From: Candidatus Thermoplasmatota archaeon
Lineage (GTDB): Archaea; Thermoplasmatota; SW-10-69-26; JACQPN01; JAJPHT01
Reading direction: 5' to 3'
Assembly (NCBI GenBank): GCA_035540375.1
Contig: DATLGO010000031.1
Span: forward strand, 1 to 64,000
Length of the DNA stretch: 64,000 nucleotides
Shown here in pieces: positions 36,301 to 49,940 of the stretch (the stretch's first letter is position 1; every line of letters begins with the position of its first letter). A program made the translations under genes and the position numbers. Below the pieces are notes generated by a model. It was not told the origin of the DNA. It did no database searches and saw only the letters and a program-made list of their open reading frames with translations.

Positions 36301-38435
36301 GACTTGCGTGGGCCAACCTCGGAAACGGCACCGCGCGTGGCGCCCGGCTGCTCGACGTCGTTCCGGCGCACGCGACGCTCGTGGACGCGGGGTCCGGGGC
36401 TGAGGTCCGCGACGGCCTCGTGACGTGGCGACTCGGCGACCTCCACCCCGGCGCTCGCGGCTTCGTGGACATGGACGTCCGCGTCGCGTGGCCCATGCCG
36501 AACGGGACGACGCGCGTCTCGGACGACGCGCTTCTCGAAGCGGAGGGACCGGAGGCGGCGCGCGACGCCGCGACGCTTCTCGTCCGCGCCGCTCCCGACC
36601 TCGCGGTCGCCAAGACCGTGGACCGGACCGCCGCGAGCCCCGGGGACCGGCTGTTCTACACGATCGGCGTCGAGAATCGCGGGTCGGCGGCCGCTTCGAA
36701 CGTCTTGATCCTCGATGCGCTTCCGGGGCATCTGTCTCTCGTCGAAACGAGCGAATCCTGCGGCCTCGTCGCAGAGACGCGGGAGGTGCGCTGCCTCGTC
36801 GGCACGCTTGCGGCCGGCGCCCGCGCTCCGTTCTGGATCCTCGCCGCCGTCGACGCGACGATGCCCTCCGGCGAGACGCGCCTCGTCAACGTCGCGGAGG
36901 CGCGCTTCCTCGAAGGCGCGCCGGCGCGGTCGAACGAGGTGGAGACCGTCGTCGCGGCGGCGCCCGAGGTCGAAGTCCTCAAGCGCGTGAACCCGGGCTC
37001 GGCGACGGAAGGTGAGCTCCTGCGCTACGTGATCACGGTGGTGAACCACGGAAACGCGGACGCCCGCGACCTCGTGGTCCGGGACCCGCTGCCGCCCGAG
37101 CTCGAGTTCGTCGACGCGGAGCCGGAGGCCGTCGTCGACGGCTCCGTCGTGACGTGGCAGGTGCCGCTCCTCGAAGCCCACGGCGGCTCGATCACGCTGC
37201 TCCTCCTCACACGCGTGCGCGACCTCGACGTGAAGAGCGTCGTCGCGTGCAACGCGGCGAGCGTCGAGGGCGCGAACGTTCCCGCAACGGAAAGCGCGCG
37301 CGCGTGCGTTCGATTGAGCTGCGCGATGCCGGACCCGCTCGCGAGCAGCGCGGCGGCCTCGGTCGCCCTCGTCGGCGGCGCGCCGTCGCACGAGGTCGCG
37401 CAGCGCGGCGAAGGCCGTCAGGAGTCGGGCTCCGCGACGGAGCTCATGACGCTGCCCGGCGTGAGGATCGGCCTCGGCGCGAACGCGGTGACGGGCGCCG
37501 TCGCCGAGGACGGCGCCGCCGTCGCGAACGCGCAAAGCGTGTTCGGGCCCATCGACGTCCTGGGCCGCCTCAAGGCCGACGGCGCGGTGATGAATCTCGT
37601 CGCCGCCACGGACGGCGCGAACGCCACGTGGTCGATCGAAGGTACGCGATTCCTGAACCTCACGCTCGACGGCGTCCCGCTCACGGACGTCGTGCCGGGC
37701 CTCGAGATCGATCTCGCGGGTGCCCGCGCGACGCTTCTCAGGGTCGACGCGCGCACCGAGGCGCCGCGCCAGGGATACGAAGGCTTCGCCGCCTTCCGCT
37801 CGACCGCGACGCTCACCCTCCTCGCCCTCGAACCCGTGCTCGGTGCTCCCGTCTCGGTGGGCGTCGCCCACGCGACGGCGCTCACGGGCGTGGAACCCGA
37901 GTGCTCGGGCCCGTCCCATCCGTGGATGCGGGCCGATGCCGCCCTCGTCGACGTCGGCGGTCTTCACGCGGTCCACGCCGGCGTCAGGGGGCTCGGCGGC
38001 GAGGACGAGCGTCGCGGCGACATGTTCGCGTCGCCGCTCGTCGAGGCGCGCGGCTGGCGCGCCCTCGCGCGCGGCGCGACGAACACGACGTGGGCGCGCG
38101 CCGAGACCGGCCTCGAAGCGGCTTACGTCGACATCCTCGACGGCCTGGTGGTCGCGCGCGGCCTCGAGGGCCGGATCGTGGTCGAGAACGGACCCTCGAA
38201 GCTCGAGGGCCACATGGCGATCGCGGAGCTCATCGTGGAAGGCCAGGCCTACGCGGGCGGCGCGATGCCTCAATCGGAGATCCCCCTCGGAGGAGGCGGT
38301 CGCGTGCTCCTGAACGAGCGCATCGCGCTCCACGACGGAGGCCTGCGGGTGAACCTCATCCGCGTCGAGGGCCCCGACGGGGTCACCCTCGCGCTCGTGG
38401 GCGCGCTCCAGGCGGAAGCGCACCTGACGACGTGA
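33306..38435 (+). CDS. Giant surface protein with nine DUF11-like repeats
   Basis: 1709 residues, extracellular. Signal peptide (cleavage near AGA, about residue 26); an N-terminal domain to about residue 275 with LVDADGDGMSEFVVDL and EMAVPWTAF resembling carbohydrate-binding modules; then nine beta-sandwich repeats of about 120 residues with the DUF11 pattern (GD..TWTI..RN.GN.T......LPPGF). Repeats 2-7 alternate between two forms, one with FEGP and one with PPGF, making a 235-residue superrepeat three times. The last 350 residues are a different domain with no repeats. No obvious C-terminal anchor is seen. Probably a cell-surface or adhesive stalk protein. GGAGG ten bases before the ATG looks like a ribosome-binding site, rare in this window. 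Confidence 0.92.
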   Translation: MIRSRPVTPAAALLLSMVLVGSPAGAAVVAPIPNASAPDFERVGWTAFPPGAPVRDHEAAFGAKDPTHGLAHGVNPAAIDIASGVASVGANPGPEPSLAWSDADASHVFFRLRVGGDPTSPGKDPKMYKAYHWNVLVDADGDGMSEFVVDLFGGKRADPPHPAGSLVVHNNHACEDVPTGNVDADNAVAPGQVVWSAPASKASNAYTRARATGDGQYWIEMAVPWTAFTYARGVCAGERALFTGSSPGLFASTSASNTNPLQKDWMAGAVLAPRLEVSKSADVAEAAPGGLITYTLEVANVGSGWARTPTLTDAVPAHTSFVSASNGGIHDAATGLVRWTLPSLAPGARATVDLSVVVADPLPSDVGAVENVAVAGGAASNAVTTPIVRAPALALALVAAPPALGPGGVGIFTFSYANTGSARAIDVVLETAFEGPGIPRPSDGVDMEGGFARWSVGDLEPGASGIATLRIDVDAALEPGVHTLVASGRLVAANAPATAAGPATILAMATAGLAVTSTPSIAEARPGDAITWTIAWRNDGNATVADARLEQVLPPGFVVVSVGDGGRMEEGVLVWVLGTLGPGASGATMVVVRAPSTAPEGRTLHEDAVTLSARSAAPARAVSQVLLIAEPLAELGFEALAPATGPGGALAFRATWSNGGDAVLRDAVLSVLFEGPVSPASLRFPIGDVAPGANGAITFDVRADERLRHGSHPVLAHAALASANAPAAAAGPARATVVAGAALALAVDVSPERGGPGDAFRWNLAWANVGNGTAASATLADLVPPGFALVAISPGGIASGDALLWTLRDLAAGSSGAAWFEARAPAHVPAGESRFPNDAKLSAEGLDTVEGSVEAIVASRGVLALAVSVSRPAMGPGDVAALTITLTNVGNAAASDARVEGLVEGPARWPDASPDARLAWDVGRLDAGETRTLVVGVVGDAIVPHGIHEVVASFNVRALDADVPAPAGVSIGIHASARLSLASTVEPGETIAGGEARFRLAWANLGNGTARGARLLDVVPAHATLVDAGSGAEVRDGLVTWRLGDLHPGARGFVDMDVRVAWPMPNGTTRVSDDALLEAEGPEAARDAATLLVRAAPDLAVAKTVDRTAASPGDRLFYTIGVENRGSAAASNVLILDALPGHLSLVETSESCGLVAETREVRCLVGTLAAGARAPFWILAAVDATMPSGETRLVNVAEARFLEGAPARSNEVETVVAAAPEVEVLKRVNPGSATEGELLRYVITVVNHGNADARDLVVRDPLPPELEFVDAEPEAVVDGSVVTWQVPLLEAHGGSITLLLLTRVRDLDVKSVVACNAASVEGANVPATESARACVRLSCAMPDPLASSAAASVALVGGAPSHEVAQRGEGRQESGSATELMTLPGVRIGLGANAVTGAVAEDGAAVANAQSVFGPIDVLGRLKADGAVMNLVAATDGANATWSIEGTRFLNLTLDGVPLTDVVPGLEIDLAGARATLLRVDARTEAPRQGYEGFAAFRSTATLTLLALEPVLGAPVSVGVAHATALTGVEPECSGPSHPWMRADAALVDVGGLHAVHAGVRGLGGEDERRGDMFASPLVEARGWRALARGATNTTWARAETGLEAAYVDILDGLVVARGLEGRIVVENGPSKLEGHMAIAELIVEGQAYAGGAMPQSEIPLGGGGRVLLNERIALHDGGLRVNLIRVEGPDGVTLALVGALQAEAHLTT

Positions 38436-38467: not shown

Positions 38468-39379
38468 GTGGCCTCCGGCGACCGCCTCGTCGTCCCCGCG
38501 CTTCTCGCCGTGTCGTTCTCGTTCGCGACCATGGCCATCGCCGGGAAGATCGCGCTCACGGGGCTCCCGCCGCTCGCCCTCGCGGGCGTGCGCGTCGCGA
38601 GCGCGGCCGTCGTGCTGCTCGCGGCCGCCTGGTTCGTCGCCCGCGAGCGCGTGCCCCGCGCGGACCTCGCCCGCATGGCGGGCCTCGCCTTCCTCGGCGT
38701 CACCGTCAACCAGGTCCTGTTCATCCAGGGCTTGAGCCTCACGGGAGCCATCCCCGCCACGGTGCTCGTCGCCACGATCCCCGCCTTCACGCTCCTCGTC
38801 GCGGGCGTCCTCGGTCACGAGAAACTCACGGCGAGAAGGGGTTTCGGCGTCGCGGTGAGCTTCACGGGCGTCGTCGTGCTCCTCGGCGCGAGCGCGGTCG
38901 GCGGCCTCGGGACGAGCCTTCTTGGGGACGCGCTCATCCTCGTGAACGCCCTGTCGTACTCGTTCTACCTCGTGCTCTCGCGTCCCGTCCTCGCTCGCTA
39001 CAGCCCCGTCACCGTGGTCGGCGTCACGTTCGGCTTCGGGGCGCTCTTCACCCTCGCCGTCTCGGCGCCCTCGCTCGCGACCGTCGATTGGGCCGCGCTT
39101 CCCCGCGACGTCGTCCTCGCGACGGGTTGGGTCGTGCTCGTGAGCACCATCCTCGCCTACGGGCTCAACAACTGGGTCCTCAGACGCGCGCCCGCCTCGA
39201 CCGTCGCGAGCTACGTGTACCTGCAGCCTCTCATCGCGGCCGCGCTCGCGATTCCGCTCTTCGGCGAGGCGCTGACGCCGGGGATTCTCGCGGGCGGAGC
39301 CCTCATCCTTGGGGGGGTCGCGCTCGTGACCCGGGATGGAAGGCCGAAGGCCGCGCCGCTTCCGGCCGCCCCCGAATGA
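38468..39379 (+). CDS. EamA-family (DMT) membrane transporter
   Basis: 303 residues, ten membrane helices in two five-helix EamA halves. Family features: PPLALAGVRVASAAVV in the first half, LTGAIPATVLVATIPAFT, and in the second half LGDALILVNALSYSFYLVLSRP and ASTVASYVYLQPLIAAALA with LFGEALTP. Members export or import small metabolites such as amino acids; the substrate is unknown. A monocistronic unit with its own TATA box, converging on the signalling operon with no gap between the stop codons. Confidence 0.92.
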   Translation: MASGDRLVVPALLAVSFSFATMAIAGKIALTGLPPLALAGVRVASAAVVLLAAAWFVARERVPRADLARMAGLAFLGVTVNQVLFIQGLSLTGAIPATVLVATIPAFTLLVAGVLGHEKLTARRGFGVAVSFTGVVVLLGASAVGGLGTSLLGDALILVNALSYSFYLVLSRPVLARYSPVTVVGVTFGFGALFTLAVSAPSLATVDWAALPRDVVLATGWVVLVSTILAYGLNNWVLRRAPASTVASYVYLQPLIAAALAIPLFGEALTPGILAGGALILGGVALVTRDGRPKAAPLPAAPE

Positions 39380-40192
39380 TCAGGCGGACTGCGCCGCCCC
39401 GAGGCGCCGCAGCAGCCAGGGGGGCGGGCGGAGGGCGACGAGGATCGTCAAGGGAATGGCGATCGCGACGATTCGCGTGAAGATGATCCACCACGCGGCA
39501 TTTTGGAGCGCCGCCGCGGAACCGAAGGCTGGAGAAAGAAACCACGCGAGAATACCGAGAGAGATGGTGGCGATGCGGAACCTCTGGATCGGCTCCTGCG
39601 TTTTCCAGTAGAGGCTTCCATACGCGATGGCGCCGATGACGATCGGCAGCACGAGAACCGCGACCACGAAGGCGACGGCGGCGGAATCGAGCGTGTTCGT
39701 ATTCACGAGTACGGCGCTCGCTCCCGCGCCGATCCGCACGTCCACGGGGTTCAGCCAGACGAAGAGGTACACGAAATAAGCGTAGATCACCGAGTAGACC
39801 AGGGCGAGCGTCCAGGCCGGCTTGAGGGAACCGGTGTAGATGAAGAGCAGGTAGGACATGAGCCCCCAGAGGCTCATGACGAGGGGGAGGATCGCGATGA
39901 AGCCGAGAGCTTCGTGGAAAACGAGGTCGTGGACGCCCATGACCACGAGGAACGTCCGCGCGCCGCCGATGAACGTGCTCACCGCGAGCGCGAACCACCA
40001 GAGGGCGAAGGCCCTGATCGCCGTTTGCGCGTTGCCTTCGGCCGGCCGCTCGCTGACGACCCGACCGATGTAAGCGTAGAGGGCGGCCGTGAGGCACGCG
40101 AGCGCTGCGCTTCCGAGCCCAAAGATATCGGTCACGGTGCGCCCTCGGGCGTCCTTGTTCGCGGACGTAGAAGAACCCTTCGTTTGGACCAC
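39380..40192 (-). CDS. Seven-helix membrane protein at end of signalling operon
   Basis: 270 residues, seven predicted membrane helices and short loops. The last gene of the kinase/pilus operon, 19 bp after the histidine kinase, so probably co-translated with it. No retinal-binding Lys occurs in the last helix, so it is not a rhodopsin. A role as sensory or partner module of the kinase is inferred from position only. The GTG at 40192 (VVQTKG) is used; a GTG at 40135 just before the first helix is an alternative and would drop a polar N-terminus of 19 residues. Confidence 0.75.
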   Translation of the reverse strand: MVQTKGSSTSANKDARGRTVTDIFGLGSAALACLTAALYAYIGRVVSERPAEGNAQTAIRAFALWWFALAVSTFIGGARTFLVVMGVHDLVFHEALGFIAILPLVMSLWGLMSYLLFIYTGSLKPAWTLALVYSVIYAYFVYLFVWLNPVDVRIGAGASAVLVNTNTLDSAAVAFVVAVLVLPIVIGAIAYGSLYWKTQEPIQRFRIATISLGILAWFLSPAFGSAAALQNAAWWIIFTRIVAIAIPLTILVALRPPPWLLRRLGAAQSA

Positions 40193-40211
40193 CGCGCATG
40201 GCGCCGACGCA

Positions 40212-41951
40212 TCAGATCAGCTCCCGCACGCGCCCTTGGATGGAGTCGATCGGCCGCGGCGTCGTGGTCGGTTTCGGCGTCGGAACGTCCGGACCCTGGG
40301 GCGGCGTGACGGGGATCCTGACCGTGAACACGGTTCCGCGGCCAGGACCGGGACTCGCGACGGCGATGGTCCCGCCGTGGGATTCGACGATGCCCTTGCA
40401 GATGTAGAGGCCGAGACCTGAACCGGTCTTGCGGTCCTTCATCGCCCCGACCTGGGAGAATGGGCGGAACAGCAATGAGGCGTCTTCAAGCGTCAAACCC
40501 GTGCCGTCGTCCTCGACCATAAGGAGAACGTCGTTGGCCCGCCTCTCGGTCCGCACCTGCACATGCCCTCCTCGCGGCGTGAATTTGATCGCGTTGCCGA
40601 TGAGATTGAAAAGGACCTGCATGAGCCGCTTTGGATCGGCTTCGAGCGAGCACGCTCCGTGGATCCGAGCCTCGAGGTGAAGGCCCGAGACGTGCGCCGC
40701 CTCCGCGTAGCTCTCGACGGCCTCGAGGACGAGGCGGTTGAGGTCGATGGATTTGCGGTCGAGCCCAAGACTTGCGGCCTGGATACGGGCGACGTCCAAT
40801 ACGTCCTGTGTGAGGATGCGAAGGCGCTCGACGTTCCGGTCGAGGACCTGGATGGACTTGATCTGCTCCGGCGACAGCCGGGTCATGTCGGCTCGCTTGA
40901 GGATGTGGATCTGCATCCGGATGGGCGTGAGGGGGGTTCCGAGCTCGTGCGCCGCCATGTTGATGAACTTCGTCCTGAAGGCGTCCATTTCGCGCAGCCG
41001 CTCGACCTCGGCCTGGCGTTCGACCGCGCGATGTCTTTCGACCTCGGCCAGCTTGCGCTCGCGGAGGTCCCTGAGAACATGGATGACGAGCGCGTCGGAC
41101 CCCAGGGACACCGCGCTCGAGGTCACCTCCATCGGAATCGCCTGCCCCGCCGCGTCGCGCGCGACGACCTCTGCAGTCTTCCGACCCCGTTTCGGGGTGA
41201 GCGCCGTGAGGTTCGTGGTATCCGCCGCGAGCAGGGACGAGATCGGGGCCCCGAGGAGCCGGTCTCGCGTTTGACCAAAGAGACCTTCCGCCTGGGCGTT
41301 CACGAGCGTGATGGCGCCCCCGTCGTCGGTGATCACGATCGGGTCGGGCGCGGCTTCGAGGAGGCTGCGGAACTTCTCCTCGGCGCGCTGCACGAGCCTC
41401 ATCTCCTCCCGCATCTCGCCCTTCGCGCGGGCTTCGTCGAAATACTGTTGCGCGATGAAAGCGCTCACGGCGGCGACAAATCCGAAATAGGATACCCGAA
41501 GGAGCGCCTCGACGAGATTGCGTTCAAGCTGTCCCATGCCGACGAGAAGGCCGAGATAGCTCACCCCGTACGCCGCGGCGCCGACGACGGTGGCCACGGG
41601 GCTGAAACGGAGCGCGACGGAGGCGATCGCGACGAAAAACAGGTGCTGAAAGGGCGAGTGGAAACCCCCCGTCGCGTAGATCCATACCATGATGAAGCCG
41701 AAATCGAAAAGGGTCGTCGCCCATGCGGCGACGATCGGCCGGAGACGTTGAAAGGGGTCGCGGAAGAGCGTGACGATGCCGTAGATGAGCGCCGCGACGA
41801 TGATGACCTCGGCGAGCCACGGCGTCGCTTCGCGAGCGGGACCTGAGACTCCGTAAACGATGGTATTGACCACGATGATCGGGAACCGGACCCACGAAAG
41901 CCATCGCTCGGCTTCGCTCAACCGGACCGCCGCGGGATTCGCCGTCGCCAT
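40212..41951 (-). CDS. Membrane sensor histidine kinase with PAS domain
   Basis: 579 residues. About six N-terminal membrane helices (20-170), a coiled linker, a PAS domain (about 190-300; APDPIVITDDGGAITLVN), then HisKA with the phosphoacceptor His335 in NMAAHELGTPLTPI and a HATPase domain with N box LFNLIGNAIKFTP, G1 VEDDGTGL and G2 KTGSGLGLYICKGI. The disordered Pro/Thr-rich tail is short. It begins 2 bp after the platform protein gene, within the filament operon whose first gene is a response regulator, so the two are the obvious phosphorelay pair. The ATG at 41951 is chosen; a longer frame would overlap the upstream gene. Confidence 0.93.
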   Translation of the reverse strand: MATANPAAVRLSEAERWLSWVRFPIIVVNTIVYGVSGPAREATPWLAEVIIVAALIYGIVTLFRDPFQRLRPIVAAWATTLFDFGFIMVWIYATGGFHSPFQHLFFVAIASVALRFSPVATVVGAAAYGVSYLGLLVGMGQLERNLVEALLRVSYFGFVAAVSAFIAQQYFDEARAKGEMREEMRLVQRAEEKFRSLLEAAPDPIVITDDGGAITLVNAQAEGLFGQTRDRLLGAPISSLLAADTTNLTALTPKRGRKTAEVVARDAAGQAIPMEVTSSAVSLGSDALVIHVLRDLRERKLAEVERHRAVERQAEVERLREMDAFRTKFINMAAHELGTPLTPIRMQIHILKRADMTRLSPEQIKSIQVLDRNVERLRILTQDVLDVARIQAASLGLDRKSIDLNRLVLEAVESYAEAAHVSGLHLEARIHGACSLEADPKRLMQVLFNLIGNAIKFTPRGGHVQVRTERRANDVLLMVEDDGTGLTLEDASLLFRPFSQVGAMKDRKTGSGLGLYICKGIVESHGGTIAVASPGPGRGTVFTVRIPVTPPQGPDVPTPKPTTTPRPIDSIQGRVRELI

Positions 41952-41953
41952 CC

Positions 41954-42841
41954 TTAGAGCACCCCTGCGAACACGGCGAACGCGAGGGCGACCATGACCC
42001 ACGCGTGTCCGAGCCCGCCTCGCCAGGAGCCGGAGCCGAGGACGCCCGCGACCAGACCGCCTCCGAGACCCTGGGCGAGCGCGGCCGCGTAGTAAAACGT
42101 CTCGAAGTCGTCGAGATCCACGCTGCGGAACGAGAGGCCCGCGGCCGATGCCGAAGCCGCCTGCGAGGTCGCGAGGACCAGCTCAGGCACGAGGGTCGCG
42201 TAGAGCAGCGCGACAACGCCCAGGAACACGACGAACGAGATGTGGATGATCGCGACGTACATCGAAATCATCGATCGCCGCTCGACTCTCATCTGCCGGC
42301 TGGCGCGTGCGTCGCGCGCGGCGATCATGAGGACTTCGCTCACGTTGCCGCCCGCAGCGCTGGCCTCGGCCACAAGCCGGGCCGCGCGTCGAACCGCGGG
42401 CGTCCGGGTCTCGATGCTGAAGCGTTCGAAGGCCTCGGCGAACTCGATGTTCCAGTCGAGGCGCTCGGCAAGTCGCCTGATATGGTGCCCGAGCGCGCCA
42501 TGGTCGCTGCGGGCCGCGACCTCCACCGCCGCGGGCAAGGTCAATCCTGCCCTCCTCGAGGCGGCGAGGTCGCGAAGAAAGTCCGGAAAGCGGTCGTCGA
42601 TCTCCTCGACCTCGCGTCGGCGCGCGTTCTCGAGAAGCGCGAAGGGGCCGAGCCCGACGAGGAGGCCGGCCGCGAGGAGATCGAGCGCTCTGCCCGGGAT
42701 GTATCCAAGCGCCGCCGGCATGGCGGCGGCCGCAAGAAGGATGCCCGCCGCAAGAGCCCCCCACGTTACGACCCGCGCGAGGTCGACGTCGCGAGCGGGT
42801 TTCGCGATCTTGAGGCCCGCAGGGAGGACCGACCCGTTCAT
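41954..42841 (-). CDS. TadC-like type II/IV secretion platform protein 2
   Basis: 295 residues. One T2SSF-type domain: two N-terminal membrane helices, a cytoplasmic helical bundle (EEIDDRFPDFLRDLAASRRAGLTLPAAVE, about 77-107, is the classic start of the domain) and further helices at the C-terminus. The sequence SAAGGNVSEVLMIAARDARASRQM completes the bundle. With the adjacent 42838 gene it would form the membrane platform for filament assembly, as TadB and TadC do. The ATG overlaps the stop of the upstream gene by four bases (ATGA). Confidence 0.9.
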   Translation of the reverse strand: MNGSVLPAGLKIAKPARDVDLARVVTWGALAAGILLAAAAMPAALGYIPGRALDLLAAGLLVGLGPFALLENARRREVEEIDDRFPDFLRDLAASRRAGLTLPAAVEVAARSDHGALGHHIRRLAERLDWNIEFAEAFERFSIETRTPAVRRAARLVAEASAAGGNVSEVLMIAARDARASRQMRVERRSMISMYVAIIHISFVVFLGVVALLYATLVPELVLATSQAASASAAGLSFRSVDLDDFETFYYAAALAQGLGGGLVAGVLGSGSWRGGLGHAWVMVALAFAVFAGVL

Positions 42842-43710
42842 GCGTCCTCCGGCGTCACCGCGTGGATCGTGAACGCGAAGGCGGCCTGCATGAGCGGGAC
42901 GACCACGAGCACGAGGAGGTAGCCGTCGGTGAGCGACGCCGAGGCGGCGGAACCGAACGACACCATGACCGAGAGCATGATGATGAGGAAGAGCGGGGCC
43001 GCCACGACGACCGTCACGTAGGATTCGGCGATGAGCCCGAGGTGATCGAGGAAGCTGCGCTGTTCGAGTCGGGTCTCCGCGGCGATTTGTTCGCTTTTCG
43101 AGATCAGGTATTCGCGAAGGCTTCCGCCCGCGCCGAGGGTGGAAACAGCGCCCTGGAGGAAGTCCGCGAAGCGGGGCGAAGGGGATTGGTCGATCGCCCG
43201 CGAAAGCGCCGAGACGAGGTCGAGGCCGAGCACGCGCATGTCGCGCGCGATCCGAGCGCACTCATCGGCGACGGGGCCGAACGCTTTCTCGCGCCCGACC
43301 TCGGCAAAGATCCTCTCGGGCACGACGCCCGCGCCCGCGAGCGCCGCAACGTAGGCGAGCGCCGCGGGGAGCGCCGCGTCGGCGCTCCTGCTCCGCGCCT
43401 CGGCGAGGATCCGGGGCACGCGGTGGACTGCGGCGACGCCGAGCAGGGTTACGAGGATGCCGAGTCCGAGCCCGAGCATCCCGGCGGCCTCGGGCGCGCT
43501 CCCGACCGCGGTCGCCGTCGCGGTCGCAAGGATCGCCATGAAAACGCCCGTTGCGGTCGACGCGCCGTACCCGACGACGAGAAAAAGGTCGGCGCGCAGG
43601 GGAAGATGGGCCCGTGCCACGTCGCGTTCGAGCCTCGCGAGGGACGGGTGCCGCCGGGCGAGCCTTCCGAAGGCCCGATACGCCAGGCGCGCGACGGGGC
43701 CCACCTTCAC
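42838..43710 (-). CDS. TadB/TadC-like secretion platform protein 1
   Basis: 290 residues. A T2SSF-type platform protein with helices near 40-95 and two at the C-terminus, and a cytoplasmic bundle between (LPAALAYVAALAGAGVVPERIF, then LGAGGSLREYLISKSEQIAAE). The central GAGGSLREYL matches the second half of the T2SSF domain. Having two single-domain platform genes next to the ATPase is the Tad arrangement rather than that of classical type IV pili or archaella. The GTG start overlaps the ATPase stop by four bases. Confidence 0.9.
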   Translation of the reverse strand: MKVGPVARLAYRAFGRLARRHPSLARLERDVARAHLPLRADLFLVVGYGASTATGVFMAILATATATAVGSAPEAAGMLGLGLGILVTLLGVAAVHRVPRILAEARSRSADAALPAALAYVAALAGAGVVPERIFAEVGREKAFGPVADECARIARDMRVLGLDLVSALSRAIDQSPSPRFADFLQGAVSTLGAGGSLREYLISKSEQIAAETRLEQRSFLDHLGLIAESYVTVVVAAPLFLIIMLSVMVSFGSAASASLTDGYLLVLVVVPLMQAAFAFTIHAVTPEDA

Positions 43711-45347
43711 GAATAATCCTCCGCGTCCTTGCGCGCCGCTTCCGCGACGCCTTCCGGATCCGTGGCGTAGGCCGCGAAGATGCGCGTCACGTGGTCGAAT
43801 CGTCGAATGCCGCGGCGGGCCATCCAGGCGAGGATCTCGGACCGCCGACGCGCCTCGGCTTCCACCGCCTCGCGGTCCAGGTTGCGGCTCTCGCCGATCT
43901 CCTCGAGGATGCGGCTCTTGCCGAGGAAGCGCATTTGGCCCGAGGCCCGGTCCCGCCTGAAGGCCGTGTTCGTGAGGATTTCGCCCGTGCGGTTGTCGAG
44001 GCCCGCGATCTCCGTGAGCTCGACGACTCGTCGAACGAGCTTTCCGTCAACCCGCAAGGAGGCCTGGATGAGGATCCCGTCAACCTGCTGGATCAGCACG
44101 CGAGGGATGTTGATCGGTTCGTTCTCGAGGCGACGGACCACTGCCTCGGCGCTGTCGGCGTGCATCGTGCTGTAGACAGCGTGACCGGTGCTCATCGCCT
44201 GGAAAAGCGTGAAGGTCTCCGCGCCGCGGACCTCTCCCACGAGGATGTATTCGGGTCGCTGCCGGAGCGCGGCCTCGAGGAGGCGGTACATGTCGACGGC
44301 TCCGGCCAGCTTGGAGCCGGAAAGCTCGCCCGCAAAGCCGGTCCTCGTCACCGACGCGATCCAATTTTCGTGCGCAAGATTGATCTCGCGCGTTTCCTCG
44401 ATGGACACGATCTTCTTCTGGAGGGGGATGAAGGTGCAGAGCGCGTTGAGGGTCGTGGTCTTCCCGCTCGCGGTGCCGCCCGCGACGAGGAGGTTGCGCC
44501 CGCTCTCCATCGCAAGCCAGAGCGTGGCCGCGAGATCTGGATCGAGCGTCCCATACGCGATGAGGTCCGGAGGCGTGAGGGGGTCGCTCCGGAACTTGCG
44601 GATCGTGAAGGACGAGCCGCGCGTGGTCACCTCGCGCGAGAGCGTGGCCTGCAGCCTGCTCGAGTCCGGCAGCGTCGCATCGAGGATCGGATCCGCGATG
44701 CTGATCTGCTTGCCCGCCCGCTGGCCGAGCCTCATCACATAGCGGTCGAGTTCGATCTCGTCGTCGAACACGACGGTTGTTCGCATCGATTCGAATCGAC
44801 GATGAAAGACGTAAAGGGGGATTCCGGGGCCGTCGCAAGAGATGTCCTCGATGAGCGGGTCGCGCATGACGACGTCCATCGGGCCGTAGCCGAGGAGATC
44901 GCGCGCAAGCGCGTATCGGACGCGTTCGCGGCCGACGGGATCGAGGAGGACGGAATGATCCACGATCGCCTGATCCGCCGCCGCAAGAAGTCTCGCCTCG
45001 CGGTCGGACGAATCAGCCGCTTCGACCGGCAAGGTCTTGACGAGCGTCTCGCGCAGGAAAGCGCAAGCCTCGCGCTCGGGACCCGCGAGGACGGGCTCCA
45101 CGACTTCGTAAAGGTTCGTTCCCGATGCGCCGTCGCGGAGGATGCGCGGAAAGGCGAGACCGCCGGTTCCGGGATCGAGGATCTCGAAGGGCGCCGCGAC
45201 CTCGCGAACCGGGGTCACGGGTCGGTCCGGCGCGAGGCCCAGCGCCGCATAGGCCGCGCGGCCGCGGAGCAGCTGGCGGTCAAGGGGCGTCGGCGCGGTC
45301 GCGCCGTTGCGAAGGCCCCGGAGGGCATCAAGCCACGATCGCGACAT
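43707..45347 (-). CDS. TadA/FlaI-type secretion ATPase
   Basis: 546 residues. Hexameric AAA-like ATPase that powers filament assembly. The N-terminal 150 residues are a helical domain; then LGYGPMDVVMRDPLIEDISCDGPG, a TadA/CpaF-like N-domain motif; Walker A GGTASGKT (290-297); the Asp/Glu box SIEETREI; Walker B YILVGEVRG (367-375); and the His box MHADSA (His 396). No zinc-binding tetracysteine of PilB type is seen. It probably interacts with the two platform proteins encoded just downstream with 4-bp overlaps. The 5' end overlaps the large pilin-like gene by 20 bp. Confidence 0.94.
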   Translation of the reverse strand: MSRSWLDALRGLRNGATAPTPLDRQLLRGRAAYAALGLAPDRPVTPVREVAAPFEILDPGTGGLAFPRILRDGASGTNLYEVVEPVLAGPEREACAFLRETLVKTLPVEAADSSDREARLLAAADQAIVDHSVLLDPVGRERVRYALARDLLGYGPMDVVMRDPLIEDISCDGPGIPLYVFHRRFESMRTTVVFDDEIELDRYVMRLGQRAGKQISIADPILDATLPDSSRLQATLSREVTTRGSSFTIRKFRSDPLTPPDLIAYGTLDPDLAATLWLAMESGRNLLVAGGTASGKTTTLNALCTFIPLQKKIVSIEETREINLAHENWIASVTRTGFAGELSGSKLAGAVDMYRLLEAALRQRPEYILVGEVRGAETFTLFQAMSTGHAVYSTMHADSAEAVVRRLENEPINIPRVLIQQVDGILIQASLRVDGKLVRRVVELTEIAGLDNRTGEILTNTAFRRDRASGQMRFLGKSRILEEIGESRNLDREAVEAEARRRSEILAWMARRGIRRFDHVTRIFAAYATDPEGVAEAARKDAEDYS

Positions 45348-46674
45348 CGAGGCTCACCTCCTTGATCGCAACGTGGACATCTTCCGATGCCGAGGACGGC
45401 GAGGTCCCGAGAATCCGGACCTGGATGGAAGCGCTTCCCGTCGTAACCATGTAATCCTTCGGCGAAACGAGACCCGCCCGACCGAAGGCGTCGTGGACGA
45501 TCCCCGCCCAAGCCGCGGGCGCCCGCGTCTCGATGACGAGGGTGGCCTCCGGCGCGCGCCCCTCAACCCGCAAGATCTTCGTCGGCGTAAGCGTGGCGAC
45601 GGCGGCGCCCGTCGAAGTCGCTTGGAGGGTTGCTCCCTGGAGACGGGCGCCGTCGAGAGAAACCACGGTGACGTCGTTGATGCGCGCGACCCCAAAGTCC
45701 GGAGGGACCCGGAAGACGAAGGCTCCGCCTTGATCAAGGAGGAGGGCGCCGTGCTCGACGACGAGCTTCTGGTCGGGATACCGGTTGTTTGCCGCCGCGA
45801 TGGAGAGCGCGCCGCCCGCGGACCTCCACGCGTAAGGCTCCCGGACGGTGCCGCCGCCCGTGGTGACGAGCGTTCCGTCGGGGGCCGCCTCTCGCGAACG
45901 CATTGCGTATTCGGCCGTGATGAACGACGAGAGCGGCTGCGCGTTGAACGTTTCGATAGAAAGCGAGACCGGCTTCTCGGCATCGGCGATCACGCGGTCG
46001 AATCGCCAGGTCGGCGTGAGGACGTCGACCCAGAACGGAGGCGCGATGGGGGAGGTCATGGAGTGGATTCCCTGGAAGAAGATCGTCGTTCCCGACTCGG
46101 TCCTCACGGCGGCGGTCAGCTCGGAGGCCTGCGAGCCGCCCGGGGCCGAAACCCGGAAGCGGAAATCGCCCGCGAAGGCGCCCGTCCGGTTCCGGAGCGT
46201 GAGGTCGACGGCGTCGAGGTGATTGGCCTGGGAAAGCGTCGACGTGATCTTGAGCCTCAAGTCGTCGACGGCGGCGAGGTTGGTGATGTTGATCCGACTG
46301 GTGAGGGGCGACCACGATTCGCTCGCGCCCGCGGCGCTTGCCCCGTCGGACCAGATGCGCATCCGCGGCGACGACACCGTGAGCGCGGGTCCCGTGGCTT
46401 CGAAGGAGACGGTGGGGGGTAGCCCCGAGGTCCCGAGGAACTCGTCCCCGCGCCCGACAGGGATCAGGAAGGCCTGCGCGCCCTGGGCGGGATCCGTCGT
46501 GCGCGCGCTCGCGGCAAGCTTCGCAAGGCGCTCCTCGAGCGTGGCGATCCTCTCGATCTCGCGATCCCGCTCCAGGGCTGGAAGCACGGTCACGCGAGCG
46601 GCGGCGAACGCGGCGGCCACGATCGCGAGGACGAGAATCGCGCCGATGACGTTGGAAACACCCTTGTCGCCCAT
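45328..46674 (-). CDS. Large pilin-like protein with class III signal peptide
   Basis: 448 residues. The N-terminus MGDKGVSNVIGAILVLAIV is an archaeal class III (prepilin) signal: a short charged leader, Gly before the cleavage site, then a hydrophobic stretch that forms the filament core or membrane anchor. The remainder is a large beta-rich extracellular domain with few Cys, much larger than an ordinary pilin (100-200 residues), so it may be a tip adhesin or minor subunit. No prepilin peptidase gene lies in the window. The ATG is 3 bp from the stop of the small pilin gene upstream. Confidence 0.85.
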   Translation of the reverse strand: MGDKGVSNVIGAILVLAIVAAAFAAARVTVLPALERDREIERIATLEERLAKLAASARTTDPAQGAQAFLIPVGRGDEFLGTSGLPPTVSFEATGPALTVSSPRMRIWSDGASAAGASESWSPLTSRINITNLAAVDDLRLKITSTLSQANHLDAVDLTLRNRTGAFAGDFRFRVSAPGGSQASELTAAVRTESGTTIFFQGIHSMTSPIAPPFWVDVLTPTWRFDRVIADAEKPVSLSIETFNAQPLSSFITAEYAMRSREAAPDGTLVTTGGGTVREPYAWRSAGGALSIAAANNRYPDQKLVVEHGALLLDQGGAFVFRVPPDFGVARINDVTVVSLDGARLQGATLQATSTGAAVATLTPTKILRVEGRAPEATLVIETRAPAAWAGIVHDAFGRAGLVSPKDYMVTTGSASIQVRILGTSPSSASEDVHVAIKEVSLDVAIVA

Positions 46675-46677
46675 GCT

Positions 46678-47121
46678 TTAGCCCACCGTGTAGATCGCAT
46701 TCGCGAGGAGGCGGGACGTGCCGTCCTCCGACGTCGCGGATACCTGTATCGAAACCCGGGCACCCGGCGCGAGCCGCAGCGTCCGGGTCCACGTTTCGCC
46801 CGCCGTGAGGCTTCCGTCGGAAAAGGCGGAGCCGAGAGCGCTTCCCGTGAGTCGCGTCGTCAGACCGTCGACGGCGTAGACCACGACGACCCGCGATGCG
46901 GGGAGGCGTTCTCCTCCGCCGTGCGTTATCCTCAGTTGGTCGTCGGCGGTGTTCCAGACCGCGTCGGGGCCGCGCGCGATGCCGGTGGAGACGTCGGCGT
47001 GAGGCGGAGTCTCGACGACGAGCCTCGCATGGAGGAAAGCCCCGAAGACTGCGGCCGCGGCCACCGTGATCGCGACGAGCAGGAGCGTCCCCACCGTCTC
47101 GACGGCCCCCCCGTCCGTCAT
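46678..47121 (-). CDS. Small pilin-like protein with class III signal peptide
   Basis: 147 residues. MTDGGAVETVGTLLLVAITV is a short prepilin-type leader cleaved after Gly, followed by a hydrophobic helix, as in archaeal type IV pilins. The mature part of about 140 residues contains DAVWNTADDQLRITHGGGE, a turn-rich segment common in archaeal pilin families (DUF1628-like), and a beta domain. It is the best candidate for the major subunit of the filament. The ATG overlaps the KaiC-like gene's stop by four bases. Confidence 0.85.
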   Translation of the reverse strand: MTDGGAVETVGTLLLVAITVAAAAVFGAFLHARLVVETPPHADVSTGIARGPDAVWNTADDQLRITHGGGERLPASRVVVVYAVDGLTTRLTGSALGSAFSDGSLTAGETWTRTLRLAPGARVSIQVSATSEDGTSRLLANAIYTVG

Positions 47122-47846
47122 CGGATGCGTCCTCCGGAGAACGAGCCCGTGATTTCGACGTTCGCTTCGTCGAAGCGGTACTCCGTCCAACCGATCTCGG
47201 GCGGCGCGCCCAGCCCCTCGACCCGCAGGAGGTGGCGGTCGCCGTCGCGCTTCACTTCGATGATGCCATGACAGAGGTGCTTGAAGGCCTGCACGTCGGC
47301 GTCCGCGTGCATCCCGTGGTCGACAAGGAGCATTCCCGTCGCCCCGGCGCGTCGCGCCATCCCGATGAAGACCTGGAGGAAGCGGAACGTGGCCTGGGGA
47401 CTCGTCTGGATCGCAAGGGTCGACACCGAGTCGAGGACGAGCGCGTGCCGCGATGCGTTCTTCGTGATCTCGCGATGAACTTTGCCGAGCGCAACGCCCA
47501 GGTCGTTGAGGCTTGCGAGCCCGTCGACGAGTTCGGTCCCGAGCCGGGGGTCCTCCTCGAATCCGATCACCCGGCTGTAGGCGTCGATCGTGTGAAGAAG
47601 CCCCGACGCGATTGGCACCGCGAGATTTCCCGCGGAGCGGGCGAGATCCTTGTGGAACTCGGAGGCCGTTGCGTTCGTGACGATCCCGAGGGCGGCGTCT
47701 CCGCGCGCGATGCTTTGTGCGAGGAAACGGCGCGCAAGCACCTCCTTCCCCGCGAAGGGCGGCCCGTACACCAGCGCGAAGGATCCTTCGGGGAGGCCCC
47801 CTCCGAGCAGATCGTCGAGTCGCCGGACGCCCGTCAGGATCTTCAC
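47118..47846 (-). CDS. KaiC/RAD55-like ATPase
   Basis: 242 residues, a single RecA-fold domain. The start TGVRRLDDLLGGGLPEGS is the classic KaiC opening. Walker A is GPPFAGKE (28-35): Lys34 is kept but Glu replaces the usual Thr or Ser next to it. Walker B is ALVLDSVS (Asp139). In archaella the related FlaH pairs with the FlaI ATPase; here the gene sits five places upstream of the TadA ATPase in one transcript, suggesting a similar regulatory role. The GTG start overlaps the fusion gene's stop by four bases. Confidence 0.88.
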   Translation of the reverse strand: MKILTGVRRLDDLLGGGLPEGSFALVYGPPFAGKEVLARRFLAQSIARGDAALGIVTNATASEFHKDLARSAGNLAVPIASGLLHTIDAYSRVIGFEEDPRLGTELVDGLASLNDLGVALGKVHREITKNASRHALVLDSVSTLAIQTSPQATFRFLQVFIGMARRAGATGMLLVDHGMHADADVQAFKHLCHGIIEVKRDGDRHLLRVEGLGAPPEIGWTEYRFDEANVEITGSFSGGRIR

Positions 47847-49018
47847 GTGACCACCCCCCGGACGTTCCGGAAGAGCCGGCGCAAGAGCGCGCGGCAGGCG
47901 ATTGGGTCGCTCACGTCGATGGGGACCACGGGGACGTCGTCGCCGAGGGCGAGCTCCCGGGCGATCTCCTCGGGCGAAAGGGCGTTCGAGGGATCCTGCC
48001 GGTTCGCGGCCACCACGATGGGAAGATGCTGGGTCCCCGATTCCTCGAGCATGGCGCGGGCGCGCTTCAACGAATAGTGGCGGCTGCTCTCGACGACGAG
48101 TACGACCCCCATCGCCTGGCCCGCGAGCATGCCGAGGAGCGGATCGAACCGCGCTTGACCGGGCGTGCCGAACACCTCGGTGGTGAAACCGTCCATCGTG
48201 ACCGTCCCATGATCGAGGGCCACGGTCGTATCGAGCCGATTGACGCTGATCGAGGTGTCGCTCACCGCGTTCACGAACGTGCTCTTGCCGGCGTGGAAGG
48301 GACCCGTCACCAGAATCTTGGGGATGTATTCCAGGACTCCTTCCGGCTCGCGGACGACGAAAGCGACGGCTTCGTCCGAGCCGTTTGCGCGCCAGCCCGC
48401 GCGCTCGACCCGGAAGGCGTGCCCCGTCGTCGCGCGGCGACCCTGGAGGCCGCTCACCTGGACGACGCCGTCGAAGGCCGAGGTGAACGGCGCGGTCCCT
48501 CCTTCGTAGGGCCACGCGGTCACAACGGTCGCGGACACGGGGAATCGCCTGAACGCGGCGACGATGCGGGGCAGGTCGCGCGCGGCCCGCTCGGGATCCG
48601 CCGCGCGATCCACGAGCGTGGACAGGGAATCGACGGCAAGGAACGCGTTCGGATAGAGGGTCGATAGGCGTTCGATCTCCATCGCGAGCGACGCAGGGTC
48701 GTACGGATCGGGTATCACATGACGGGCTCCGAAATCGAGGCCGAGTCCCGACGAGTAGCCGTCCACGATGACGAGCTTCGGGGCTCTGGCGTCGAGGCCG
48801 AAGGCGCGCAGACGCATCGCGACCGCGTTCGGCGGGCGGTCAAGGCCGACGAAAACCACGGGTCCTCCGCGGGCGACGTGCTCGCGCGCGGCCTGGTAGA
48901 GGAACGGCGTCGCGTCGACGCCCGGATCATTGACGAAGACCACCGACGAGCCCTTGGGAACCGGCGCCATCCGCCGGTCGACGGCGGGGACGCCGATGAG
49001 CGTGGAGGCGGAGGACAC
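47843..49018 (-). CDS. KaiC-like domain fused to a small GTPase
   Basis: 391 residues in two parts. Residues 5-225 look like a KaiC/RAD55 domain in which the P-loop is lost (VNDPGVDATPF has no Lys) while the Walker B-like FLAVDSLSTL is kept. Residues 232-391 form a complete Ras-like GTPase of the COG2229/MglA type: G1 GPFHAGKST (239-247), G3 FGTPGQARF (283-291) and G4 ANRQD (338-342). The GTPase would switch filament activity with the adjacent Roadblock protein as partner. The GTG start is 3 bp from the Roadblock stop. I know of no standard name for this fusion. Confidence 0.9.
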   Translation of the reverse strand: MSSASTLIGVPAVDRRMAPVPKGSSVVFVNDPGVDATPFLYQAAREHVARGGPVVFVGLDRPPNAVAMRLRAFGLDARAPKLVIVDGYSSGLGLDFGARHVIPDPYDPASLAMEIERLSTLYPNAFLAVDSLSTLVDRAADPERAARDLPRIVAAFRRFPVSATVVTAWPYEGGTAPFTSAFDGVVQVSGLQGRRATTGHAFRVERAGWRANGSDEAVAFVVREPEGVLEYIPKILVTGPFHAGKSTFVNAVSDTSISVNRLDTTVALDHGTVTMDGFTTEVFGTPGQARFDPLLGMLAGQAMGVVLVVESSRHYSLKRARAMLEESGTQHLPIVVAANRQDPSNALSPEEIARELALGDDVPVVPIDVSDPIACRALLRRLFRNVRGVVT

Positions 49019-49021
49019 ACT

Positions 49022-49420
49022 TCAGCCTCCGTTTTCCTTCGAGTGCTCGATCGCCTTCCGCACGTGCGCAAAGGTCTGTTTGAGGTCCGCGTTCGGCTCA
49101 GCCACGGCGACGAGCATGAGATCGGTGGCGGCCGCGACGGCGATCAGGCTCACCCCCTCGGCCTCCAGTCGGAGGATCACGGGGGAGCGGCCCCCGAGCT
49201 CGCCCACCATCGTTTCGCCGGCAGCCATGACGGCGGCCGCGAGCGCGCTCATGGTCCCGGGTCGGGAGATCTTCGGACATTCGTTGATGACGCAAAGACC
49301 GTCGCGCGTGACGAGGAGCGCGCCCTGGATGCCGGGCGCGTCGGAGAGGGTGGCGAGGGCCTGTTTCCATGGATCGCGAATCACGCCGAGAGGCGTCCTT
49401 CTGGGTGAACCGATGGTCAT
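49022..49420 (-). CDS. Roadblock/LC7-domain protein
   Basis: 132 residues. A Roadblock fold of the MglB type: LSDAPGIQGALLVTRDG (about 25-41), the central helix MSALAAAVMAAGETMVGELG, and LIAVAAATDLMLVAVAEPNADL. MglB homologs are GTPase-activating partners of MglA-like GTPases; the next gene encodes such a GTPase, so this pairing is very likely. The gene begins 1 bp after the response regulator stop. The ATG at 49420 is used; the frame is open upstream but within the response regulator gene. Confidence 0.9.
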   Translation of the reverse strand: MTIGSPRRTPLGVIRDPWKQALATLSDAPGIQGALLVTRDGLCVINECPKISRPGTMSALAAAVMAAGETMVGELGGRSPVILRLEAEGVSLIAVAAATDLMLVAVAEPNADLKQTFAHVRKAIEHSKENGG

Positions 49421-49421
49421 G

Positions 49422-49940
49422 TCAGGTCCTCCGCCCGAGCTCGTGACGCATGGCGTCGAGGCTCCTGGCGAATGCCCGCGCCCGAAGCTCGTCGGCGCGG
49501 CGCGCCCGGAGGATCGAGAAGACGTTCTCGACAACGACGTCAGGATCGAACGGTTTGACGAGGAAGTTGTGCACGCCTTCGAGGTTGATGGCCTTGAGCG
49601 CGATGTCGAGGTCGGGATAGGCCGTGATGAGCATCCGGGCGCTCCCGGGGGCGATCTTCTGGGCGGCGGCGAGGAACTCGAGTCCTGTCATCCCCGGCAT
49701 CCGGTAGTCCGTGATGATGAGATCGACGGCCTCCTTTTCGAGGAGCGTGAGCGCGTCGGGACCCGACGTTGCCACCACCACGTCGATCTCGAGCTCGGCC
49801 TCGAGCAGATCGCGGAGCGAATCGCCGATGTCCACCTCGTCGTCGACGACCAGGACCCGCTGACGGCGGATGGGGTCGGACGCGTCGTCCGTCACGGCGA
49901 TCCTCTCCATCGGGAAAGGGGGGCGCCCGAAACCAGCCAT
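49422..49940 (-). CDS. Response regulator, single receiver domain
   Basis: 172 residues. One REC domain: acidic pair in VLVVDDEVD (Asp33-34), phosphoacceptor Asp78 in ITDYRMPGMTG, Thr106 in LITAY and Lys129 in LVKPFD. There is no DNA-binding output domain; a short helical tail follows (ARSLDAMRHELGRRT), so it probably works by protein contact, perhaps on the GTPase or ATPase. First gene of the operon; the kinase is encoded at 40212-41951. The ATG at 49940 is used; an internal ATG at 49910 just before the REC domain is an equally plausible start. Confidence 0.9.
   Translation of the reverse strand: MAGFGRPPFPMERIAVTDDASDPIRRQRVLVVDDEVDIGDSLRDLLEAELEIDVVVATSGPDALTLLEKEAVDLIITDYRMPGMTGLEFLAAAQKIAPGSARMLITAYPDLDIALKAINLEGVHNFLVKPFDPDVVVENVFSILRARRADELRARAFARSLDAMRHELGRRT

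What the first reader, a model, noticed from the sequence alone, without database searches (positions are those of the whole stretch)
39380..49940. Eleven-gene operon coupling a Tad-like filament machine to a GTPase/Roadblock/KaiC/two-component circuit
On the minus strand, with gaps of at most 19 bp and mostly overlapping: response regulator, Roadblock, KaiC-GTPase fusion, KaiC-like ATPase, small pilin, large pilin, TadA-type ATPase, two TadC-type platform proteins, histidine kinase, 7-TM protein. In bacteria MglA (GTPase)/MglB (Roadblock) set type IV pilus polarity, and Streptomyces conservons pair kinase, Roadblock and COG2229 GTPase, but one archaeal operon holding the filament machine together with the whole switch is, as far as I know, not described. 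It suggests a regulated filament for surface sensing, twitching or secretion.
Basis: partly seen in the sequence, partly recalled or inferred. Interest (0 to 1): 0.92.

Follow-up and report, generated by a model that had tools for sequence, protein, structure and literature searches.

The report
Archaeal pilus operon with GTPase switch
An uncultivated archaeon has one eleven-gene operon that joins a pilus-building machine to a Ras-like GTPase switch and a sensor system; the three-gene core of the switch recurs in many archaea and sits beside pilus genes in several lineages, which suggests that archaea have their own counterpart of the bacterial MglA/MglB pilus control.

Summary
Eleven minus-strand ORFs (49895 to 39380) follow each other with gaps of -20 to +19 bp. 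They encode a receiver-only response regulator, Roadblock, a KaiC-like/GTPase fusion, a second KaiC/ArlH-like protein, two archaeal pilins, a FlaI-type assembly ATPase, two TadC-type platform proteins, a PilS-like histidine kinase and a 7-TM protein. 'Tad-like' should read 'archaeal type IV pilus': the ATPase scores 393 bits to FlaI and 163 to TadA. The core is the trio Roadblock–fusion–ArlH-like. In 60 of 79 GTDB loci (Archaeoglobi, Methanosarcinales/ANME, Hydrothermarchaeota, Thermoplasmatota) all three are contiguous. The fusion's KaiC half has no P-loop; its GTPase half is intact and carries the GTPGQ motif of MglA groups 2–5. In Thermoplasmatota the trio lies within about 10 kb of a pilus ATPase in 8 of 26 genomes, in several gene orders. 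In methanogens and Archaeoglobi it stands apart from pilus genes. Best explanation: a Ras-type switch, tuned by Roadblock and two-component input, acts through ArlH-like docking on pilus assembly. Gene context supports the coupling; the mechanism is inferred. Roadblock and KaiC genes near archaeal pili were known; I found no report of the GTPase fusion or the trio.

The parts
49422..49895 (-). Receiver-only response regulator (157 aa, helical C-terminal tail, no DNA-binding domain)
   Evidence: PF00072 4.6e-23; SD-like GGAGAGG before GTG 49895; RR homologues beside the trio in G001, G002 and CheY-like RRs convergent to the trio in several loci of family f5 (three by Pfam; more by profile)
49022..49420 (-). 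Roadblock/LC7 protein (132 aa), MglB/CvnB-like, predicted GTPase regulator
   Evidence: PF03259 5.9e-10; family profile hits Roadblock chains 9jue, 7f8m, CvnB5 (3leq) and MglB (6h5b); R39-D40-G41 nearly invariant or invariant
47843..49018 (-). Fusion: P-loop-less KaiC-like domain (aa 1-230) plus Ras/Arf/MglA-type GTPase (aa 231-391)
   Evidence: AlphaFold pLDDT 91.8, pTM 0.89; KaiC fold by Foldseek
47118..47846 (-). Second KaiC/ArlH-like protein (242 aa), P-loop GPPFAGKE
   Evidence: PF06745 6.7e-19; KaiC and FlaH/ArlH models below cut-off; GK[E/D] in most orthologues
46678..47121 (-). Small type IV pilin (147 aa)
   Evidence: PF07790 2e-9; one N-terminal hydrophobic segment, residues 12-30
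45328..46674 (-). Large pilin-like protein (448 aa), class III-type signal MGDKG/VSNVIG, probably a minor pilin
   Evidence: DUF7289 1e-11 and weak Pilin_N; TIGR02537 just below cut-off; homologue in L053 at 3e-54
43707..45347 (-). FlaI/ArlI-type pilus assembly ATPase
   Evidence: PF00437 2.2e-37; NF058587 393 bits; tree
42838..43710 (-). TadC/ArlJ-type platform protein 1
   Evidence: PF00482 3.7e-14
41954..42841 (-). TadC/ArlJ-type platform protein 2
   Evidence: PF00482 5.1e-19
40212..41951 (-). Sensor histidine kinase: PilS-like membrane part, PAS, HisKA, HATPase_c
   Evidence: PF02518, PF00512, PAS and weak PF25323 6TM_PilS 1.4e-4, below its cut-off
39380..40192 (-). 7-TM membrane protein of no known family
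   Evidence: no Pfam or NCBIfam match; homologues next to Roadblock in G125 and next to the HK in G002; model pLDDT 76

Best explanation
This is a euryarchaeal type IV pilus assembly operon fused to an archaeal Ras-type signalling module. Shown: the gene order, the protein families, conservation of the trio Roadblock / psiKaiC-GTPase / ArlH-like KaiC, and its repeated linkage to pilus assembly genes in Thermoplasmatota. Inferred mechanism: (1) the GTPase half of the fusion is, in most lineages, the only part of the trio with an unimpaired nucleotide site and cycles between GTP and GDP; (2) the Roadblock protein binds it and sets its state, as MglB does for MglA; (3) the receiver-only regulator, phosphorylated by the PilS-like kinase (and perhaps fed by the 7-TM protein), acts by protein contact on Roadblock or GTPase, as RomR does in Myxococcus, not by binding DNA; (4) the P-loop-less KaiC half and the ArlH-like partner, which usually lacks the Mg-binding Ser/Thr, form a KaiC-type assembly that docks on the FlaI-type ATPase, as ArlH docks on ArlI, so that the GTPase state permits or blocks pilus assembly at a given time or place.
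For: Tight 11-gene operon. Trio contiguous in 60 of 79 named loci, several exceptions being contig ends. Pilus ATPase within about 10 kb of the trio in 8 of 26 Thermoplasmatota with the fusion, against a rough expectation of 0.03 per genome. Arrangements include trio-pilins-ATPase-TadC (window, L053), trio-x-ATPase-TadC-TadC (G125/L167), ATPase-TadC-TadC-trio (L040, L047, L048, L163), convergent (L032), and ATPase-TadC-TadC-fusion-x-Roadblock in a MAG labelled Nanoarchaeota (L125). The ATPases of the window, G002, G125 and L053 form a clade (100/98). GTPase motifs G1 GPFxxGKS/T, G2 GTT, G3 GTPGQ, G4 ANKQD conserved, with GTPGQ and Thr-Thr being the MglA group 2-5 signature (PMC4316618). The KaiC half has no P-loop in any of 48 members. 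RR genes flank the trio in family f5. MglA-GTP activates type IV pili in Myxococcus through SgmX (PMC7668184).
Against: In Archaeoglobi and Methanosarcinales the trio is not beside pilus genes within about 10 kb (only 2 of 79 named loci contain such an ATPase), so it is not a dedicated pilus device everywhere. In G002 the trio and the pilus genes are about 9 kb apart with an opposite-strand gene between. Some linked GTPases have FGIPGQ or FGLPGL in place of FGTPGQ, so hydrolysis may differ. No interaction, GTPase or transcript data exist. In sequence the GTPase is closest to Arf-family chains of the PDB, not to MglA.
Confidence: 0.55

Rival explanations
1. The trio is a general archaeal signalling or polarity module with targets other than the pilus; its place in the pilus operon reflects co-expression, and it acts on pili indirectly or only in some Thermoplasmatota.
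For: The trio occurs without pilus genes in Archaeoglobi, Methanoperedens, ANME-2 and Methanosarcinaceae, next to housekeeping genes; also unlinked in G034, G047 and others of family f5.
Against: Repeated linkage to ATPase/TadC in several gene orders and overlapping reading frames inside one operon; pili can also be controlled in trans, so absence of linkage is weak evidence.
Confidence: 0.3
2. The signalling genes control expression of the pilus through two-component signalling, like PilS-PilR, and the GTPase plays no role in assembly.
For: The kinase has a PilS-like membrane part with PAS, HisKA and HATPase domains; a TrmB-type regulator gene lies divergently upstream.
Against: The RR of the operon has no DNA-binding domain, and the trio is conserved independently of the kinase.
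Confidence: 0.1
3. The eleven genes are a chance concatenation of a pilus operon and an unrelated signalling operon in this lineage.
For: The full eleven-gene order was not found in any second genome.
Against: Fusion-ArlH-like-pilin-pilin-ATPase-TadC1 in L053 and Roadblock-fusion-ArlH-like-x-ATPase-TadC-TadC in G125, from another family; chance expectation low.
Confidence: 0.05

Closest known systems
MglA-MglB-RomR polarity switch of Myxococcus xanthus and its control of type IV pili through SgmX
   Same: Ras-like GTPase, Roadblock partner and receiver-domain partner tied to a type IV pilus
   Different: The GTPase is fused to a P-loop-less KaiC domain, comes with an ArlH-like protein, and lies in one operon with the pilus machine; no SgmX or RomX seen; the GTPase has the group 2-5 GTPGQ motif, not the group 1 Arg and TVPGQ of Myxococcus MglA
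Streptomyces conservons (CvnA-D)
   Same: Kinase, Roadblock and MglA-type GTPase in one operon
   Different: No LPxR tail on the kinase, no NxFD G4 motif, no CvnC-type protein seen, and a filament machine is present
Euryarchaeal clade 2 type IV pili (PilB3/PilB4-type loci of Makarova et al. 2016)
   Same: VirB11/FlaI-type ATPase, two TadC-like genes, pilins; KaiC-family and Roadblock genes reported in such loci
   Different: The text of that census names no Ras-type GTPase, no KaiC-GTPase fusion and no kinase/RR pair inside the operon (its supplements were not read)
Archaellum ArlH-ArlI-ArlJ
   Same: KaiC-like ArlH-type protein beside a FlaI-type ATPase and ArlJ/TadC-type platform
   Different: No archaellin or other Arl accessory gene in the operon; the genome has a separate archaellum locus on C66; the ArlH-like protein scores far below the ArlH cut-off and usually lacks the P-loop Ser/Thr
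Group 4 (euryarchaeal) MglA proteins
   Same: Archaeal, GTPGQ G3 motif, no bacterial G1-G2 insertion, related to Arf
   Different: Described as single-domain proteins without conserved neighbours; here KaiC-fused with conserved neighbours

Membership tests
MglA family, groups 2-5 | GTPGQ motif in G3 | tested here: met
   Window FGTPGQARF; GTPGQ is the commonest form among 48 fusions, FGIPGQ in a minority; motif definition from PMC4316618
MglA family, groups 2-5 | Thr in place of the group 1 Arg beside the G2 Thr | tested here: met
   DTTVALDHG in the window, GTT in most members, GAT in a minority
MglA family, groups 2-5 | Coupled MglB/Roadblock with a conserved Asp-Gly pair | tested here: met
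   D40-G41 nearly invariant/invariant in 24 linked Roadblock proteins; family profile matches MglB and CvnB5
MglA family, groups 2-5 | Single-domain GTPase | tested here: not met
   Fused to an N-terminal KaiC-like domain in all 48 aligned members
MglA group 4 (archaeal) | Placement with group 4 in a tree of prokaryotic small GTPases | not tested
   No reference set of group 4 sequences was at hand; PDB search puts the domain nearest Arf-family chains
MglA/MglB switch | GTP hydrolysis stimulated by the Roadblock partner | not testable with these tools
   Needs biochemistry
Streptomyces conservon | Kinase with C-terminal LPxR motif | tested here: not met
   Kinase ends ...RPIDSIQGRVRELI, no LPxR; motif named in PMC4316618
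Streptomyces conservon | G4 motif NxFD in the GTPase | tested here: not met
   ANRQD in the window, ANKQD in most members; motif named in PMC4316618
Archaeal type IV pilus, euryarchaeal clade 2 type | FlaI/VirB11-type ATPase with two TadC-like proteins and class III-type pilins | tested here: met
   two tadC-like genes in many clade 2 loci per PMC4858521
Archaeal type IV pilus, euryarchaeal clade 2 type | Clade placement of the ATPase in the published tree | not tested
   Only a local tree was built
Archaellum | Archaellin and Arl accessory genes in the operon | tested here: not met
   No archaellin match among the operon's proteins; archaellins with ArlH/ArlI-like genes are on contig C66
ArlH | Score above the NCBIfam ArlH cut-off | tested here: not met
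   30.7 bits against 215
KaiC clock protein | Two tandem KaiC domains with intact Walker A | tested here: not met
   Single domains; P-loop absent in the fusion and GKE in the partner

The most novel reading that the evidence does not exclude
Archaea have their own widespread Ras-type switch: a hetero-oligomer of a P-loop-less KaiC-GTPase fusion and an ArlH-like protein, read by a Roadblock partner and a receiver protein, that controls when or where type IV filaments are assembled by docking on the FlaI-type ATPase, and that was present early in the euryarchaeal lineage.
Probability: 0.3. Interest if true: 0.87.

Novelty: new variant of a known kind. Interest (0 to 1): 0.68.

Why it matters
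The 2014 survey of prokaryotic Ras-like GTPases found no conserved neighbours for the archaeal group 4 MglA proteins, and the text of the 2016 census of archaeal type IV pili names no Ras-type regulator. The trio gives archaeal Ras-type GTPases a defined partner set and, in Thermoplasmatota, a likely target machine. It makes testable whether GTPase control of type IV filaments was invented separately in bacteria and archaea or is old, and it links KaiC/ArlH-type proteins to small GTPases. The GTPases are also close in sequence to the Arf family, so the system bears on where that family came from.

Tried and rejected
A single-sequence scan of genome contigs found nothing; an alignment was needed. 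The 7-TM protein was folded (pLDDT 76) and searched against the PDB: only generic 7-helix receptors with E above 0.01, so no fold claim is made. A receiver-Roadblock fusion elsewhere in the genome (C106) was looked at as linking evidence, but its Roadblock match is below the Pfam cut-off and hhalign gives 4.8% probability, so it is not used. Rejected readings: conservon (LPxR and NxFD absent), archaellum (no archaellin, separate locus on C66), circadian KaiC (single degenerate domains), chance concatenation (conserved blocks). Twitching was not rejected: archaeal pili can retract without PilT (PMC11178785), but nothing here supports it in particular.
Full report
What is there. The minus strand from 49895 to 39380 carries eleven ORFs with junctions of -20 to +19 bp. 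Pfam and NCBIfam name them as response regulator, Roadblock, KaiC-GTPase fusion, KaiC/ArlH-like protein, two pilins, assembly ATPase, two TadC/ArlJ platform proteins, histidine kinase, and an unnamed 7-TM protein. The convergent EamA transporter gene (38468-39379, + strand) ends at the base next to the last base of the 7-TM gene; a TrmB-type regulator and an MFS transporter lie divergently upstream. The window is inside an 84.5 kb contig of a 3.13 Mb genome, 97% complete. G001 is JAJPHT010000012, labelled 'Proteobacteria', which looks like a mislabel.

The machine. The ATPase scores 393 bits to NCBIfam FlaI (below that model's cut-off of 550) and 163 to TadA. With two TadC-like proteins and pilins that carry class III-type signals (MGDKG/VSNVIGA for the large one), it fits the euryarchaeal clade 2 pili of Makarova et al. 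2016 (PMC4858521). The same genome has an archaellum locus on C66, two other pilus ATPases on C94 and C48, and a prepilin peptidase on C98. The operon is therefore one of several filament systems and depends on a peptidase encoded elsewhere.

The switch. The 391-aa fusion is modelled with high confidence (pLDDT 91.8, pTM 0.89) as a KaiC fold (Foldseek) joined to a small GTPase. In an alignment of 48 members the KaiC half has no P-loop in any of the forms seen (for example FVNDPGVDATPF where relatives have GxxGxGKT), while the GTPase half keeps G1 GPFxxGKS/T, G2 GTT, G3 GTPGQ and G4 ANKQD. GTPGQ and the Thr-Thr pair are the published signature of MglA groups 2-5 (PMC4316618); K245 to T265 is 20 residues, so the bacterial MglA insertion between G1 and G2 is absent, as in archaeal proteins. 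By sequence search against the PDB the domain is nearest Arf-family chains, in line with that paper's view that group 4 MglA and Arf are close. The Roadblock partner belongs with MglB/CvnB-type proteins and keeps the Asp-Gly pair. The ArlH-like partner usually reads GPPMSGK[E/D]: the Lys stays, the Mg-binding Ser/Thr is replaced; Archaeoglobaceae keep GKS. So in most lineages the GTPase is the only unimpaired nucleotide site of the trio (inference from motifs).

Conservation. A pattern scan of GTDB genomes found 201 relatives. Among 79 of the best 80 loci in which the fusion could be called, Roadblock is adjacent in 68, the ArlH-like gene in 66, both in 60; several exceptions are contig ends. 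The taxa, by record title, are Archaeoglobaceae, Methanoperedens, ANME-2 and other Methanosarcinales, Alkanophagales, Altiarchaeales, Hydrothermarchaeota and Thermoplasmatota. The order is ArlH-like-fusion-Roadblock in most non-Thermoplasmatota and Roadblock-fusion-ArlH-like in most Thermoplasmatota.

Linkage to pili. Of 26 Thermoplasmatota genomes with the fusion (of 156 searched), eight have a pilus ATPase within about 10 kb: G000 (window), G001, G002, G007, G039, G059, G078, G125. Several others are cut by contig ends. The named locus L053 has fusion-ArlH-like-pilin-pilin-ATPase-TadC1, the window's order, and is truncated on both sides. G125, from another family, has 7-TM-Roadblock-fusion-ArlH-like-x-ATPase-TadC1-TadC2. 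Families f5 and f29 have ATPase-TadC1-TadC2-Roadblock-fusion-ArlH-like. G001 has the two blocks convergent with kinase and RR beside them. G002 has them about 9 kb apart with an opposite-strand gene between, with a kinase after TadC2 and kinase, 7-TM and RR genes near the trio. L125, a MAG labelled Nanoarchaeota, has ATPase-TadC1-TadC2-fusion-x-Roadblock. With 1-5 ATPase-like genes per genome the chance of such proximity is about 0.03 per genome; 8 of 26 would then have P about 5e-7 if genomes were independent, which they are not; three independent events in 12 families (a number I assumed) would have P about 0.004. The window-type ATPases (G000, G002, G125, L053) form a supported clade apart from the f5/f29 ATPases, so linkage arose or was kept in at least two pilus lineages.

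Signalling input. The RR has a receiver domain and a short helical tail, no DNA-binding domain. In family f5 a CheY-like RR is convergent to the ArlH-like gene (three confirmed by Pfam; more by profile). The kinase has a PilS-like membrane part, a PAS domain and a standard kinase core; PilS of Pseudomonas controls pilin expression and motility (PMC6058289). The kinase, 7-TM and RR genes stay near the trio in G002 even though the pilus genes are farther off.

How it most likely works. MglA-GTP turns on type IV pili in Myxococcus by recruiting SgmX (PMC7668184), and ArlH is thought to switch the archaellum motor ArlI (PMC12448462). The operon combines parts of both. I propose that the GTPase state, set by Roadblock and by a phosphorylated receiver, is passed by the KaiC-type halves to the FlaI-type ATPase. 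Steps shown: gene set, motifs, conserved linkage. Steps inferred: nucleotide cycling, Roadblock action, RR contact, docking, effect on assembly.

What is known and what is new. Roadblock (arCOG02603) and KaiC genes in archaeal pilus loci were reported in PMC4858521. PMC4316618 found no conserved neighbours for group 4 MglA. Searches of the open literature for KaiC with MglA, and for Roadblock with archaellum or pili and GTPase, returned nothing on the fusion or the trio; subscription papers, preprints and supplements were not covered. I therefore call it a new variant of a known kind. The limits are that the trio is not pilus-linked in most archaea sampled, that no second genome shows all eleven genes in one order, and that no function has been tested.

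Noticed in passing
window 33306-38435 (+): A 1709-aa protein with at least six DUF11 repeats (PF01345, 8e-81), probably a large surface protein, one gene away from the pilus operon.
   Followed up: no
L217 14123-14938 (contig C106 of the same genome): One protein joins a receiver domain and a Roadblock-like domain (Roadblock 21.7 bits, just under the Pfam cut-off of 23), a possible natural link between the two partners.
   Followed up: partly
L167 10664-14393: Three paralogues of the window's 7-TM protein lie beside the trio in G125, so this unnamed family may be a receptor class tied to the module.
   Followed up: partly
L125: In a MAG labelled Nanoarchaeota the trio region holds further Roadblock genes and what looks like a HAMP-type sensor protein; its pilus ATPase is very divergent.
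   Followed up: no
L035, L036, L039: Some Thermoplasmatota have three or more KaiC/ArlH-like genes around the fusion, as if the KaiC part had multiplied.
   Followed up: no
L057 11501-12106: In Archaeoglobaceae a protein of about 200 aa that looks like a V4R-type sensor follows Roadblock directly; not checked by profile.
   Followed up: no
   Followed up: partly
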